Part shown: piece after piece, positions 5,417 through 20,726 of the stretch
Position numbering within the stretch: the first letter of the stretch is position 1
Layout: each line of letters begins with the position of its first letter
Source of the DNA: Halopiger djelfimassiliensis
GTDB taxonomy: Archaea > Halobacteriota > Halobacteria > Halobacteriales > Natrialbaceae
DNA length: 64,000 nucleotides
Direction: 5' to 3'
NCBI RefSeq assembly: GCF_000455365.1
Contig: NZ_HG315684.1
Span: forward strand, 197,789-261,788
The notes under the pieces: model-generated
What the model was told of the DNA's origin: nothing
What the model saw: only the letters and a program-made list of their open reading frames with translations
Databases searched by the model: none
Position numbers and translations under genes: made by a program

Positions 5417-5580
5417 GTCCGGGACCGCTTTCGCGACGACTGGTCAGCGCCGGTTTCCGATCCGAACGGCTCGGGTCGCCCGCTGGCTTGCGTCGGCCTG
5501 GACGGCAGAAACCGACGGATAGCGGGCCGAAAGCGACGCGTGTGCGATTTTATTCGACCCGTGCCTCGGGCTAGTAACGC

Positions 5581-5587
5581 TTAAAAC
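5581..5587 (+). promoter_or_regulatory. Putative TATA box of dnaK
   Basis: TTAAAAC is centred about 28 nt before the dnaK ATG at 5612, which is the spacing expected for an archaeal TATA box driving a leaderless mRNA. A second AT-rich stretch (GATTTTATT, about 5546-5554) lies further upstream and could give a transcript with a leader. No bacterial CIRCE-type inverted repeat is visible between them. Confidence 0.4.
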
Positions 5588-5611
5588 AAAGTGCGCATAA
5601 TAGCCCCCATA

Positions 5612-7561
5612 ATGGCGAGCAACAAGATTCTCGGAATCGACCTCGGTACGACGAACAGTGCCTTCGCCGTGATGGAAGGCGGCGATCCGGAAATCATCGT
5701 CAACGCCGAAGGTGAACGGACGACGCCCTCCGTCGTCGCGTTTAACGACGACGAGCGACTCGTCGGGAAGCCGGCGAAGAACCAGGCCGTCCAGAACCCC
5801 GAGCGGACGATTCAGTCGATCAAGCGCCACATGGGTGAGGAGGACTACACCGTCGAGATCGATGGCGAGGAGTACACGCCCGAAGAGATCTCGGCGATGA
5901 TCCTCCAGAAGATCAAACACGACGCGGAGGACTACCTCGGTGACGAAGTCGAACGCGCCGTCATCACGGTCCCGGCGTACTTCTCGGACCGACAGCGCCA
6001 GGCGACCAAGGACGCCGGCGAGATCGCCGGCTTCGAGGTCGAGCGCATCATCAACGAGCCGACTGCCGCGTCGATGGCCTACGGCCTCGACGACGAATCC
6101 GACCAGACCGTCCTCGTCTACGACCTCGGCGGTGGCACGTTCGACGTCTCTATTCTCGATCTCGGCGGCGGCGTCTACGAGGTCGTCGCTACGAACGGTG
6201 ACAACGACCTCGGTGGGGACGACTGGGACGAGGCGATCATCGACTGGCTCGCTGACAACTTCGAGGAGGAGCACGGGATCGACCTCCGCGAGGACCGGCA
6301 GGCCCTCCAGCGGCTGAAAGACGCCGCCGAGGAGGCCAAGATCGAACTCTCATCGCGCAAGGAAACCGAGATCAACCTGCCCTTTATCACGGCGACCGAC
6401 GACGGCCCGATCCACCTCGAGGAGGCCCTGACGCGGGCCAAGTTCGAGTCGCTGACCGAGGATCTCATCGAGCGCACGGTCGAACCGACCGAACAGGCCC
6501 TCGAGGACGCCGGCTACGACAAAGACGACATCGACGAGGTGTTGCTCGTCGGCGGTTCGACCCGGATGCCCCAGGTCGCCGAGAAGGTCGAGGAACTGAC
6601 CGGCAAGGAACCACAGAAGAACGTCAATCCCGACGAGGCCGTCGCGCTGGGTGCGGCCATTCAGGGCGGGGTCCTCGGCGGCGAGGTCGACGACATCGTC
6701 CTGCTCGACGTCACGCCGCTCTCGCTGGGGATCGAGGTCAAGGGTGGCCTCTTCGAACGTCTCATCGAGAAGAACACGACGATTCCGACCGAGGAGTCGA
6801 AAATCTTCACCACGGCGGCGGACAACCAGACCTCCGTCCAGGTGCGGGTCTTCCAGGGTGAACGCGAAATCGCCGAGGAGAACGAACTGCTCGGCGAGTT
6901 CCACCTGACCGGCATCCCGCCGGCCCCCGCTGGAACCCCACAGATCGAAGTGACCTTCTCCATCGACGAGAACGGTATCGTCAACGTCTCTGCGGAGGAC
7001 AAAGGCTCCGGCAACCAGGAGGAGATCACCATCGAAGGCGGTGCCGGGCTCTCCGACGCAGAGATCGAGGAGATGCAACGCGAGGCCGAGAAACACGCCG
7101 AAGAAGACGAGAAAAAGCGCCAGCGGATCGAGGCCCGCAACACCGCCGAAGCGACGATCCAGCGCGCCGAAAAGCTGCTCGAGGAGAACGACGAAGAGGT
7201 CGACGACGACCTCCGGGAACAGATCGAGGCCGCCGTCGAGGAGCTCGAGGCGACGATCGACGACGACGAGGCCGACGCCGAGGAGATCGAAGCGGCGACC
7301 GAGGAACTGAGCACGGAACTTCAGGAGATCGGCAAACAGATGTACCAAGAAGCCGGTGCCGAGGGCGCTGCCGGTGCAGGTCCGGGCGGCGCGGCCGGCG
7401 CAGGTGCAGGCCCCGGCGGTGCGGCCGGTGCTGGTGCCGGTCCCGGCGGCATGGGCGGCGGCCCGAATCCCGGTCCGGGCGGCGCTGCCGGTGGTGAGGA
7501 CGAGGAGTTCGTCGACGCCGACTTCGAAGACGTCGACTTCGAGGAAGACGACGAGGACTGA
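5612..7561 (+). CDS. dnaK: Molecular chaperone DnaK (Hsp70)
   Basis: The 649-residue protein has the Hsp70 phosphate-1 motif [13 protein letters not shown] near the N-terminus, the phosphate-2 motif [12 protein letters not shown] (about residues 175-186) and the adenosine motif [12 protein letters not shown] (about 310-321). A substrate-binding domain with NEDAxxx-like [11 protein letters not shown] precedes it, followed by a helical lid and a Gly/Ala/Pro-rich tail (about 580-625) ending in an acidic [19 protein letters not shown]-type terminus. It refolds proteins with DnaJ and GrpE. ATG at 5612 begins the conserved [12 protein letters not shown]; the GTG at 5591 is rejected. dnaJ is 1.7 kb downstream; grpE is not in the window. 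Confidence 0.98.
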
Positions 7562-17699: not shown

Positions 17700-18542
17700 G
17701 TGATCCGCAGCGATACCGGGGATCTCCCCGGTGGCCATCCCTACGTTAGCGTCGGGAACGGCTCCCGATCGCTCGTCGTCATGCCGGGGTTCGGTGACGC
17801 AATGTTTTCCGGACGCTATCCGCCCGGCACCGGCTGGATGCTCGCGCCGTACTTCGCGCGGTACCTCGACGAGTATACGGTCTACGTCCTCAGTCGTCCC
17901 CGCGGGCTCCCGCCGGGGTACGACGCCGACGACTCGGTTTCGACCCACGCTCGCGCGTTCGAATCGATCGCCGACTCGAGCGACGGAGTCGACGCGATCG
18001 GCATCTCCATGGGCGGGTTGATCGGCTTAGAGCTTGCCCGCCGGAACCCGACGCCCATCGATCGACTCGTGGTCGCGAACAGCGCCTGTCGTCTCGACGA
18101 CGACGCTCGCCCGATCGTCCGGCGGTTCGAGCGCTACGCCCACGACGGCGACTGGGCGTCGATCCGGTCCGAACTCGCCGGTGCCATGTTCGCCGATTGC
18201 CGCGCGATGGGCTACCCCATGCTGGTGCAGACGATGGGGCGTTTCGTCCAGCCACGACCCGCCGAGCCTGCGGACGTCCGGCGCTCGCTCGAGTTCATTC
18301 TCGAGTTCGACGGCTGTGGCCGACTCGAGGAAATCGACCGGCCGACGCTCGTCTTCGGCGGCGAGCGCGATCCGTTTTTCACGGCGGCCCGAGCCCGTGA
18401 GACCGCTGCAGGGCTCCCACACGGGGAACTCGAACTCGTCTCGGGCGCGAAACACGGGGCCTTCCACGAACGAAAGCTCACGTTCGACTCGCGGGTTCGC
18501 TCGTTTCTGGATCGGGCCGTGCCGCCGTCGCTCGAGGCCTGA
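17700..18542 (+). CDS. Alpha/beta hydrolase
   Basis: The 280-residue protein starts at GTG 17700, 6 nt after the DUF892 stop. It has the nucleophile elbow GISMGG (about residues 101-106, catalytic Ser), an acid residue in GGERDPFFTAA (about 219-229) and a terminal His in SGAKHGAFHERK (about 249-260), completing the Ser-Asp-His triad. An oxyanion region is seen in VVMPGFGDAMF. The substrate is unknown. Tight coupling to DUF892 suggests co-expression under stress. The gene converges on a short minus-strand coding remnant that abuts the insertion element. Confidence 0.88.
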   Translation: MIRSDTGDLPGGHPYVSVGNGSRSLVVMPGFGDAMFSGRYPPGTGWMLAPYFARYLDEYTVYVLSRPRGLPPGYDADDSVSTHARAFESIADSSDGVDAIGISMGGLIGLELARRNPTPIDRLVVANSACRLDDDARPIVRRFERYAHDGDWASIRSELAGAMFADCRAMGYPMLVQTMGRFVQPRPAEPADVRRSLEFILEFDGCGRLEEIDRPTLVFGGERDPFFTAARARETAAGLPHGELELVSGAKHGAFHERKLTFDSRVRSFLDRAVPPSLEA

Positions 18543-18546
18543 TCCG

Positions 18547-18636
18547 TCAGCGTACCGGGCTCGCCTCGCTGCGAGCCTCGAGCCAGTCACAGACGCGGGG
18601 CCAGCCCTCCTCGTGAGCGTCGTCCGCTATCTTGAT
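18547..18636 (-). pseudogene. C-terminal remnant of a minus-strand gene cut by the insertion element
   Basis: Read on the minus strand, 18636 to 18547 gives IKIADDAHEEGWPRVCDW, then LEARSEASPVR and a TGA stop. The segment has haloarchaeal coding character, but its 5' part is missing because the left end of the IS begins at about 18637. On the far side of the IS, the minus strand from 20401 reads MVGVTTRGAFTSRTVQADD. If the element ended at 20344 the two pieces would join in frame as a protein of about 48 residues; if it ended at 20341 a stop would intervene. I do not recognise the protein, so the disrupted-gene interpretation is tentative. Confidence 0.4.
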
Positions 18637-18649
18637 TCAGCGAGAGAAT

Positions 18650-18715
18650 CCCGCCCTTCCCGCGAAGGACGAGCGTTCCGACGCTCAGTCGGAACCGAGA
18701 ACTGAGCAGGGCGGG
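18650..18715 (+). repeat. Left-end stem-loop of the insertion element
   Basis: An 8-bp outer stem (18650-18657 with 18708-18715) encloses a perfect 8-bp inner hairpin with the 5-nt loop GCTCA (18675-18695). Subterminal imperfect palindromes of this kind are bound as single strands by Y1 transposases of the IS200/IS605 group. Confidence 0.75.
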
Positions 18716-18751
18716 AGTGAATCGCGTAAGCTCTGGTGAGAAGCTGCCGAG

Positions 18752-18895
18752 TTACTGCTGGTCTTGAGTCTCCAACGTATCGAGTCCGGCTTCTAATAAC
18801 TCTGTATAGGCTTCTGATAGCGTCAGGTCGCGTTCCTCTGCGAAGTCTTTGATACGTCCCTGTAGCGTGTGGGTTATTTCTACGTTTGGTCGCAT
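18752..18895 (-). CDS. Small ribbon-helix-helix-like protein of the IS element
   Basis: A 47-residue protein starting MRPNVEITHTLQGRIKDFAEERDLT and ending EAYTELLEAGLDTLETQDQQ. One beta-strand-like segment followed by two helices, the second with LSEAYTELLEAG, resembles a CopG/ribbon-helix-helix DNA-binding protein. It lies inside the IS, divergent from tnpB with a 44-nt intergenic stretch, in the place where tnpA sits in complete IS605 elements. A role in repressing the shared promoter region is inferred. ATG 18895 is chosen over an upstream in-frame start at 18973, which would run into tnpB. Confidence 0.65.
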   Translation of the reverse strand: MRPNVEITHTLQGRIKDFAEERDLTLSEAYTELLEAGLDTLETQDQQ

Positions 18896-18907
18896 AGTCC
18901 AACAGTC

Positions 18908-18916
18908 TTTTATGCA
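18908..18916 (+). promoter_or_regulatory. Putative TATA box of tnpB
   Basis: CTTTTATGC is centred about 28 nt before the GTG start of tnpB at 18940, the spacing expected for leaderless transcription in haloarchaea. It lies in the 44-nt gap between the divergent RHH-like gene and tnpB, so a DNA-binding RHH protein could cover it. Confidence 0.45.
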
Positions 18917-18939
18917 TGACAACCTAACAATCTGTCGTC

Positions 18940-20286
18940 GTGAAGCGTACCAACACGTTTGCCGTGCGACCACTCACCGACGACGATGAGCAGGTGCTAC
19001 GGGACCTGTTGGACGCTTCCGCCGCTCTCTGGAACGAGATAAACTACCAGCGCCTCATGCGCTACAACGACGAAGACGGCTTCGAGGGCGAAGATGTGTG
19101 GGACGCCGATACCGGCAAACTCGAAGGCAAATACAAAGGCGTTCTCGGCGCGTCCACCGCCCAGACTGTCCGGCGAGCAAACACCGAAGCGTGGTGGTCG
19201 TTCTTCGAGAACAAGAAGGCGTATCACGACGAATCGAACACGTCGGTCACGGAACACCCGGAACCGCCGGGCTTCCGTGGCAACGAGGACGACGGACGTG
19301 TTCTCAAAGGCGTCGTCCGAAAGGACGCATACACCGTCGAATGGGGCGACCGCTCTCGGCTTGAGATGGTTATCGGAAAAGAACTCCGTGATAGGCACAA
19401 CAGCCCGAAAAGCCGTCTCCGGCTCGAAATCGTTGGCGACCCGAACTGGCCTGACTACGAGGACCAGAGCCGGTTAGAATTGTGGTACGACGAGACTGAT
19501 AGCACCTTCCGAGCTTCGCAACCCGTGACTGTTTCTGACGATGCACGGGATACTCCACTGGCCGACGAGAAGGCCGCTCTGGACATTGGTGCAAACAATC
19601 TCGTCGCCTGTACCACCACAACCGGCGAGCAATACCTGTACGAAGGCCGCGAGTTGTTCCAGCGATTCCGTGAGACGACACGAGAAATTGCCCGGTTACA
19701 GTCGAAACTACGGGAAAGCCGATACAGTAGCGAGCGCATCCGGCGACTGTACCGCAAGCGAACCCGTCGCCGGGACCACGCCCAAGAAGCACTGTGTCGT
19801 GACCTGCTGGACCGACTGTACGCCGAAGATGTCGATACCGTGTATATCGGCGGGTTGACCGACGTACTCGAAACGCACTGGTCGGTCGAAACCAACGCCA
19901 AGACCCACAACTTCTGGGCGTTCAAGCAATTCACCGAGCGACTGGCGTGTACCGCCGAGGAATACGGCATCTCGGTCGAAGTCCGGTCGGAAGTATGGAC
20001 CAGTCAAGAGTGCCCGCAGTGCGGCTCGACAGACCGAACGACACGGCATCAGGACACGCTCACCTGTCGGTGTGGGTTCGAGGGGCACGCCGACCTCACG
20101 GCGTCAGAGACGTTCCTGAGACGGCACACAGAACAGGCAGTCAGGCCGATGGCACGGCCCGTGCGGTTCGAGTGGGACGACCACAACTGGTCGGAGCCAC
20201 CACACTCTCACGAAAGTCCCAAAGAACAGCGCACAGACCCGATTACCGTCCACCGTGACGGGAATGTTGCTTCCGGGGAATCTTAG
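18940..20286 (+). CDS. tnpB: TnpB family protein (RNA-guided nuclease relative; OrfB of IS1341 type)
   Basis: The 448-residue protein starts at GTG with [25 protein letters not shown] RuvC-I aspartate is visible in [15 protein letters not shown] (D214), a zinc ribbon in CPQCGSTD...CRCG (about residues 358-378) and the RuvC-III aspartate in GHADLTAS (about 384). The RuvC-II position, usually E in a V-x-x-EDL motif, here reads [11 protein letters not shown] (about 300-310), so the canonical Glu is replaced by Gly; the Glu seven residues on might or might not substitute. Family members use an omega-RNA from the element's 3' end to cut DNA beside the TAM. The right-end hairpin follows within 30 nt of the stop. 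Confidence 0.92.
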
Positions 20287-20312
20287 ACCGGCTGAGACTC
20301 CCACGGAGGAAA

Positions 20313-20332
20313 CCCCGCCGTTCACGGCGGGG
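20313..20332 (+). repeat. Right-end hairpin of the IS element (omega-RNA scaffold candidate)
   Basis: A perfect 8-bp stem CCCCGCCG/CGGCGGGG with loop TTCA, 26 nt after the tnpB stop. In IS200/IS605 elements the 3' end of tnpB and the right end encode the omega-RNA, and the guide is taken from the DNA just beyond the element. Here the guide would begin at about 20342-20345. Transcription is not shown by the sequence. Confidence 0.7.
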
Positions 20333-20444
20333 AGGATGTCATCAGTCGTCGGCCTGCACTGTCCGCGACGTGAACGCTCCTCGCGTCGTCACGCCGACCA
20401 TCGGAACCGTCGGCTACAAGGGATATCACCCCCAATTCCGGAGT

Positions 20445-20726
20445 GTGAAACTCGAGTGCGTCTTCTTCGGTCCGTTTCGGGACGCCGTCGGCGAGAAGAC
20501 CGTCCGGTACGAGACGGAGGCCGAAACCGTCGGCGAACTCCTGGCCGACCTCGAGTCGAGCTATCCGGCCCTCAAGGGACGGCTCGTGGCCGACGACGAG
20601 GCCGGACTCGCCGGCGATACCGTCGTCACGAAGAACAAACGGAACGTCACGCACCTCGAGGGACTCGGGACGGAACTCGAGGCGGACGACGTACTCCGAC
20701 TTGTTCCGTCGGTCTACGGCGGGTAA
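20445..20726 (+). CDS. MoaD/ThiS family sulfur-carrier protein
   Basis: The 93-residue protein starts (GTG) KLECVFFGPFRDAVGEK and ends DDVLRLVPSVYGG with the C-terminal Gly-Gly needed for thiocarboxylation. It has the ubiquitin-like MoaD fold and would carry sulfur for the dithiolene of molybdo- or tungstopterin. An in-frame start at 20370 would add 25 residues without family similarity, so GTG 20445 is preferred. It converges on the aldehyde:ferredoxin oxidoreductase gene with a gap of 14 nt, and the frequent pairing of aor with a moaD-like gene suggests that it serves the tungsten cofactor of that enzyme. The IS ends about 100 nt upstream. Confidence 0.87.
   Translation: MKLECVFFGPFRDAVGEKTVRYETEAETVGELLADLESSYPALKGRLVADDEAGLAGDTVVTKNKRNVTHLEGLGTELEADDVLRLVPSVYGG

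What the first reader, a model, noticed from the sequence alone, without database searches (positions are those of the whole stretch)
18632..20344. IS element whose TnpB has Gly in place of the RuvC-II catalytic Glu
The RuvC-I Asp (DIGANN) and RuvC-III Asp (HADLTAS) and the zinc ribbon are intact, but the motif that normally carries the catalytic Glu (V-x-x-EDL) reads [11 protein letters not shown]. If the later Glu of VLE does not substitute, the protein is a nuclease-dead RNA-guided DNA-binding protein, like the described TldR repressors; if it does, this is a variant active site. It also lacks a TnpA and has a small RHH-like gene in that position.
Basis: partly seen in the sequence, partly recalled or inferred. 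Interest (0 to 1): 0.6.

Follow-up and report, generated by a model that had tools for sequence, protein, structure and literature searches.

The report
Haloarchaeal TnpB with relocated catalytic glutamate
A small mobile DNA element of a salt-loving archaeon encodes an RNA-guided DNA-cutting protein whose key acidic residue is not lost but sits at a second, already known position in the protein, so it is probably an active enzyme and not a dead regulator.

Summary
In detail: where TnpB normally has its RuvC-II glutamate the window protein has Gly304. The nuclease-dead reading does not. All relatives keep Gly304, and all keep a glutamate 47 residues later, Glu351, six residues before the zinc ribbon (ExxxxxxCxxC). 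That is the published "alternative Glu" (Ealt, also called RuvC-II rearrangement) known from Fanzors and some TnpBs; one rearranged TnpB has been reported to cut DNA. Among 141 non-redundant TnpB homologues here, 101 have only the Glu at 351, 39 only the canonical Glu, one both, none neither. The gene is under purifying selection (dN/dS about 0.1). The element has ordinary parts: ends (18631-20342), a covarying omega-RNA scaffold, guides that differ from copy to copy, and a CTAY target motif (not TTGAT) supported by two uninterrupted sites. Missing TnpA is common in haloarchaea; nine of 80 relatives still carry it. The small divergent ORF accompanies 34 of 80 relatives; its ribbon-helix-helix assignment is weak. 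Verdict: a new member of a known kind; cleavage itself is untested.

The parts
18627..18630 (+). putative target/transposon-adjacent motif CTAT (family consensus CTAY)
   Evidence: conserved leftmost 4-mer before variable flanks: 44 of 54 pattern-detected left ends carry CTAY followed by C; two uninterrupted sites show CTAC or CTAT directly before the guide-matching sequence
18631..18725 (+). left end with subterminal inverted repeats (arms 18640-18657 / 18708-18725)
   Evidence: conserved start against variable flanks
18752..18895 (-). 47-aa divergent ORF, possible ribbon-helix-helix DNA-binding protein
   Evidence: homologues in 34 of 80 relatives; only sub-threshold profile matches (Tra_M E 0.012; ORF56 E 0.15)
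18940..20286 (+). tnpB, 448 aa, GTG start
   Evidence: dN/dS 0.082-0.145 against the ten closest foreign copies
19582..19584 (+). codon of RuvC-I Asp215
   Evidence: D in 80 of 80; 96 of 96 non-redundant rows with a letter, one row gapped
19849..19851 (+). codon of Gly304, at the canonical RuvC-II Glu position
   Evidence: G in 80 of 80, 97 of 97; alignment to Cas12f
   Evidence: E 55, D 37, K 3, G 1, S 1 of 97
19990..19992 (+). codon of Glu351, the alternative catalytic Glu (ExxxxxxCxxC)
   Evidence: E in 79 of 79, 97 of 97; codons GAA 76, GAG 25
20011..20073 (+). zinc ribbon C358xxC361 ... C376xC378
   Evidence: columns
20092..20094 (+). codon of RuvC-III Asp385
   Evidence: D in 79 of 79, 96 of 96 with one row gapped
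20238..20342 (+). omega-RNA 3' scaffold: two hairpins, then AGGATGTCAT; overlaps the 3' end of tnpB
   Evidence: fold z -3.33; covariation in 51 rows; sub-threshold Rfam HgcC match 20257-20354, 28.4 bits, E 0.00049
20343..20358 (+). first 16 nt of the guide, taken from the flank
   Evidence: sequence after the right end differs: 69 distinct 16-mers in 73 loci

Best explanation
This is a TnpB-only element of the IS200/IS605 type (IS1341-like) whose TnpB is an RNA-guided nuclease of the RuvC-II-rearranged (Ealt) class. Gly304 occupies the canonical Glu position and Glu351, at the end of the last RuvC strand before the zinc ribbon, completes the metal site with Asp215 and Asp385. The 3' end of the element gives an omega-RNA scaffold ending in GGAGGATGTCAT, and the flanking DNA supplies the guide. 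The complex would cut the guide-matching site next to CTAY, typically an empty copy of the donor site, so that repair from the occupied copy keeps the element. Shown here: conservation, mutual exclusion of the two Glu positions, element ends, structured RNA, variable guides, target motif. Inferred: metal binding by Glu351, cleavage, and retention by break repair.
For: Glu351 is invariant: 79 of 79 and 97 of 97, with both Glu codons used, 76 GAA and 25 GAG. Gly304 is invariant. Of 141 non-redundant homologues, 101 have x304/E351, 39 E304/x351, 1 both, 0 neither. In the same genome the Gly304-type copies L082-L084 carry Glu at this column and the Glu304-type copies L085-L089 carry Pro or Ala (columns). 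The motif fits the published Ealt definition, Glu six residues before the first CxxC (PMC10711439). A rearranged-RuvC-II TnpB (RII-r5) was reported active (PMC10278001, passages). dN/dS is 0.082-0.145. The omega-RNA covaries: 102 both-side-changed cells against a shuffled mean of 34. 69 distinct guides in 73 loci. Two uninterrupted sites.
Against: No cleavage assay and no coordinates from the model, so the metal-site geometry was not measured; the model is only moderate (mean pLDDT 69.6, pTM 0.51; residues 309-324 under 50). In the tree the Ealt rows are one side of a single branch (95/90), so the mutual exclusion reflects few events and the Fisher values overstate it. The report of an active rearranged TnpB covers one RII-r5 member; I could not test whether this family is RII-r5. 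The second zinc knuckle is CxC. One copy in the same genome (L090) has Glu at both columns. Both uninterrupted sites differ by about 125-130 bp beside the insertion, so neither is a perfect empty site.
Confidence: 0.85

Rival explanations
1. The protein is a nuclease-dead RNA-guided DNA-binding repressor, like TldR.
For: The canonical RuvC-II Glu is Gly in every relative.
Against: An invariant alternative Glu at the published position; zinc ribbon and both Asp kept; complete element ends; guides differ between copies (69 distinct in 73 loci), whereas a repressor of one operon would keep its guide; no fixed non-transposon partner beyond a small ORF in 34 of 80.
Confidence: 0.07
2. The Glu of VLE (Glu311) replaces the canonical Glu.
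For: E or D in 92 of 97 non-redundant relatives.
Against: K, G or S in five of 97 that keep Glu351; E or D is also common at this column in homologues that have the canonical Glu (e.g. L085-L089), so it tracks the fold rather than the switch; the model is under pLDDT 50 there, so geometry is not informative.
Confidence: 0.04
3. The window copy is a decaying pseudo-element whose substitutions are neutral.
For: It carries some private residues, e.g. D297 where 80 of 80 relatives have G, and it is the only close copy in its genome.
Against: Open reading frame without stops; dN/dS about 0.1 against the ten closest foreign copies; all motifs and both ends intact.
Confidence: 0.05

Closest known systems
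TnpB proteins with the alternative RuvC-II glutamate (Ealt, D-Phi-G clade; RII-r clades)
   Same: Glu six residues before the first CxxC, no canonical Glu, D-Phi-G at RuvC-I, mobile element with 3' guide RNA
   Different: second zinc knuckle CxC, outside the regular expression in PMC10711439; haloarchaeal, CTAY motif, small divergent ORF instead of TnpA. Whether the census by Altae-Tran and others (2023) already lists this family could not be checked (paper not held).
Fanzor / pro-Fanzor
   Same: position of the alternative Glu
   Different: RuvC-I is DIG, not DPG; prokaryotic IS1341-like element
ISDra2 TnpB (IS200/IS605)
   Same: overall fold (8h1j Z 17.0, rmsd 6.5 over 343 residues), RuvC Asp residues, 3' guide RNA, target motif on the left side
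   Different: canonical Glu in ISDra2 (E278, as the finding states; recalled); TTGAT there (PMC10278001), CTAY here; no TnpA here
TldR RNA-guided repressors
   Same: canonical RuvC-II Glu absent, guide RNA at the 3' end
   Different: catalytic set is relocated rather than lost; variable guides; no fixed regulated partner gene seen
haloarchaeal IS1341-type elements (tnpB without tnpA)
   Same: lone tnpB, no target duplication, low copy number (PMC3119063)
   Different: many copies sampled here (e.g. L107-L136) carry the canonical Glu

Membership tests
TnpB (guided_TnpB, NF040570) | score above the curated cut-off over the full protein | tested here: met
   154.8 bits against 100, residues 13-394
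Ealt / RuvC-II-rearranged TnpB | Glu six residues before the first zinc CxxC and no canonical Glu | tested here: met
   E351-VWTSQE-C358PQC361; G304; 97 of 97 relatives; definition from PMC10711439
Ealt / RuvC-II-rearranged TnpB | D-Phi-G at RuvC-I (the non-Fanzor Ealt clade) | tested here: met
   D215-I-G217; D in 80 of 80, G217 in 78 of 80
Ealt / RuvC-II-rearranged TnpB | two CxxC zinc knuckles, as in the published search pattern | tested here: not met
   second knuckle is C376xC378 in 96 of 96 rows with letters; this is part of a search pattern, not of the Ealt definition
Ealt / RuvC-II-rearranged TnpB | guided DNA cleavage using the alternative Glu | not testable with these tools
   needs biochemistry
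Fanzor / pro-Fanzor | DPG at RuvC-I together with Ealt | tested here: not met
   DIG
TldR | loss of the RuvC catalytic set | tested here: not met
   D215, E351, D385 invariant
TldR | stable association with a non-transposon gene and a conserved guide | tested here: not met
   69 distinct guides in 73 loci; small ORF in 34 of 80
IS200/IS605-type element | subterminal hairpins, short left target motif, no target duplication | tested here: met
   the two comparison sites carry a further length difference
IS200/IS605-type element | own Y1 transposase TnpA | tested here: not met
   none in the window element; one Y1_Tnp in the genome, next to another tnpB; TnpA adjoins tnpB in 9 of 80 relatives

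The most novel reading that the evidence does not exclude
In haloarchaea this Ealt TnpB lineage has exchanged its transposase for a small divergent DNA-binding regulator that controls tnpB or omega-RNA output, and the element persists and spreads by guided breaks alone, including between related plasmids (one sub-lineage's guide matches an intact polymerase-like gene of a related locus next to CTAT).
Probability: 0.12. Interest if true: 0.55.

Novelty: new member of a known kind. Interest (0 to 1): 0.27.

Why it matters
It warns against calling a TnpB dead from the loss of the EDL glutamate alone: a check of the residue six before the zinc ribbon is needed. It also points to a large, halophilic family of relocated-Glu TnpBs (122 of 194 sampled haloarchaeal genomes at E 1e-60, the window's own included) with a defined target motif and guide scaffold, ready for a cleavage test.

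Tried and rejected
The Glu of VLE as substitute was rejected because residue 311 varies to K, G and S. TTGAT as target motif was rejected because conservation begins at CTAY and two uninterrupted sites show CTAC and CTAT. A perfect empty site for the window copy was not found: the genus sample held one genome, and the two family-level loci with the neighbouring hydrolase gene (L152, L163) are too diverged at the junction. The window guide has no obvious second target in its genome: 23 matches with up to two mismatches to a 16-mer against 8 for the reversed control; of the eight that became loci, six printed (one of them the element's own flank) and none of the other five is preceded by CTAY. 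The two known haloarchaeal sotRNA families named in PMC12558985 were not reported for 18400-20700 at E up to 1. A viral-contig scan with the alignment gave two loci, and one with L088 gave none. A search for the RNA family by a covariance model was not made. The first right-end pattern was too strict and found almost nothing.

Rows dropped: one search left out hits with more than 60 gaps in the 194 core columns and did not print how many; one search shows all 148 aligned hits of that stage, gaps included. One search used 31 representatives below 80% identity. Searches used 50 of 73 right ends after removing near-copies, plus the window. One search's left-end pattern gave 54 places, 44 with CTAY-C; of the other ten one (L196) reads CTAC without the C and two (L024 at 738, L072 at 5001) look like chance matches of the pattern.

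Full report
What is there. The window holds a TnpB gene at 18940-20286 (+), 448 aa, which scores 154.8 bits against the guided_TnpB cut-off of 100. The same alignment puts Cas12f's Pro, in its motif before TSQRC, on Glu351.

The relocated glutamate. Among the 80 best relatives kept from genome contigs (127 confirmed), position 304 is G in 80 of 80, D215 is D in 80 of 80, E351 is E in 79 of 79 and D385 is D in 79 of 79, while 311 is E 47, D 28, K 3, G 1, S 1. In 97 non-redundant family members 304 is G and 351 is E in all, and 311 is E 55, D 37, K 3, G 1, S 1. Both Glu codons occur at 351 (GAA 76, GAG 25) and all four Gly codons at 304, so these are selected residues, not recent copies of one sequence. 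Over the wider set of homologues the two Glu positions exclude each other: 141 non-redundant rows give 101 x304/E351, 39 E304/x351, 1 with both (L090) and 0 with neither; at 70% clustering 5, 17, 1 and 0 (Fisher p 1.8e-4 at 70%, 1.8e-16 at 90%, not corrected for relatedness). In a tree of 31 representatives the eight Ealt rows are one side of a branch with support 95/90, so the switch may have happened once in this sample.

What it is known as. Yoon and others (PMC10711439; passages and one section read) define Ealt as a Glu six residues before the zinc-finger motif, in Fanzors and in a D-Phi-G clade of TnpBs, and use the pattern ExxxxxxCxxC. The window protein has E351-VWTSQE-C358. Nety and others (PMC10278001; passages) call such proteins RuvC-II rearranged, say there is no prior expectation of inactivity, and report one active RII-r5 member. 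Xu and others (PMC11423790; passages and section 7 read) place the catalytic Glu on the loop between the fifth strand and the TNB domain. In the AlphaFold2 model here strand 345-350 is followed directly by Glu351, and Gly304 lies in strand 298-305; the model is moderate (pLDDT 69.6) and gives no coordinates, so distances were not measured. Structural neighbours are Cas12f (9i8y, Z 19.8, rmsd 6.4, 361 aligned), ISDra2 TnpB (8h1j, Z 17.0, rmsd 6.5, 343 aligned) and mimivirus Fanzor2 (9b0l, Z 15.3, rmsd 6.2, 359 aligned).

The element. Conservation on the left begins at CTAY and then C (44 of 54 pattern-detected left ends), and on the right it stops after GGAGGATGTCA plus T or A. In the window this gives CTAT at 18627-18630 and element ends 18631 and 20342. 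The last 105 nt fold as two hairpins (z -3.33; the third hairpin of the minimum-energy fold was not counted); on 51 sequences 89.9% of pair cells are standard pairs, with 102 cells changed on both sides against a shuffled mean of 34 (0 of 500 shuffles as high) and at most 24 when the partners are slid; the number of pairs with any such change, 10, is not above the shuffles (137 of 500 as high). Rfam's HgcC model matches this end below its threshold (28.4 bits, threshold 50; E 0.00049). The sequence after the right end, the guide, is different in nearly every copy: 69 distinct 16-mers in 73 loci; the shared ones are L031, L034, L035 and L042, which share at least 91% identity over 400 bp of flank, and L049 with L053.

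Uninterrupted sites. L042, L035 and L199 contain L044's right flank directly after CTAC, and L044 contains the sequence that follows the element in L031 and L035 directly after CTAT (14 of 16 guide positions by eye; L034 and L042 have the same 16-mer). In both cases a further stretch of about 125-130 bp differs beside the insertion, so these fix the target motif and the right boundary rather than give a perfect empty site.

Accessory genes. TnpA is absent from the window element; the genome has one Y1 transposase, beside another tnpB. Lone tnpB genes are usual in haloarchaea (PMC3119063, section 27). Nine of 80 relatives have a TnpA that adjoins or overlaps tnpB. A divergent 47-aa ORF occurs in 34 of 80 relatives (a few other contigs are too short upstream to tell); many of the rest keep sequence like the end of that ORF, which suggests loss. 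Its best profile matches include DNA-binding proteins, all below threshold, so its name is tentative.

Selection and distribution. dN/dS is 0.082-0.145 against the ten closest foreign copies. The family is present in 122 of 194 sampled haloarchaeal genomes at E 1e-60, 50 of 65 genera.

Conclusion. The likely mechanism is an omega-RNA-guided nuclease with a D215-E351-D385 site that cuts CTAY-flanked matches to the flank-derived guide. Conservation, RNA and boundaries are shown; metal binding, cutting and element retention are inferred. Nothing here requires a new kind of system. For publication status I searched the held library; none of the listings named this haloarchaeal family, but the 2023 TnpB/Cas12 census and the TldR discovery paper are not held, so I do not claim it is undescribed. 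TldR properties were taken from passages of PMC13418256.

Noticed in passing
L031, L034, L035, L042 (also L197, L199): right flank of the element: Six loci share at least 91% of 400 bp of flank and, where checked, the same guide; that guide matches an intact gene in L044 that looks like a family-B DNA polymerase (recalled from its start, not searched), next to CTAT. This could be guided competition between related plasmids.
   Followed up: partly
L044 about 5526-5653 and L042 about 1449-1578: Both uninterrupted sites carry an extra stretch of about 125-130 bp that is missing beside the insertion in the occupied allele; deletion with insertion is one explanation.
   Followed up: no
L057, L076, L078, L080 upstream of tnpB: The sequence upstream of tnpB reads as a different small divergent ORF, so the place of TnpA seems to have been taken by more than one kind of small gene.
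   Followed up: no
window 18540-18630 (-): Reads as the C-terminal end of a gene that is longer in the related locus L152; the element may have displaced the rest.
   Followed up: partly
L090 (same genome, contig C2 about 231829-232461): A divergent TnpB homologue with Glu at both the canonical and the alternative position.
   Followed up: no
residues 376-378 of the window TnpB (20065-20073): The second zinc knuckle is CxC in the whole family, so searches that demand CxxC miss it.
   Followed up: partly
tnpB residue 297 of the window (19828-19830): Asp where 80 of 80 relatives have Gly, a private substitution of this copy.
   Followed up: no
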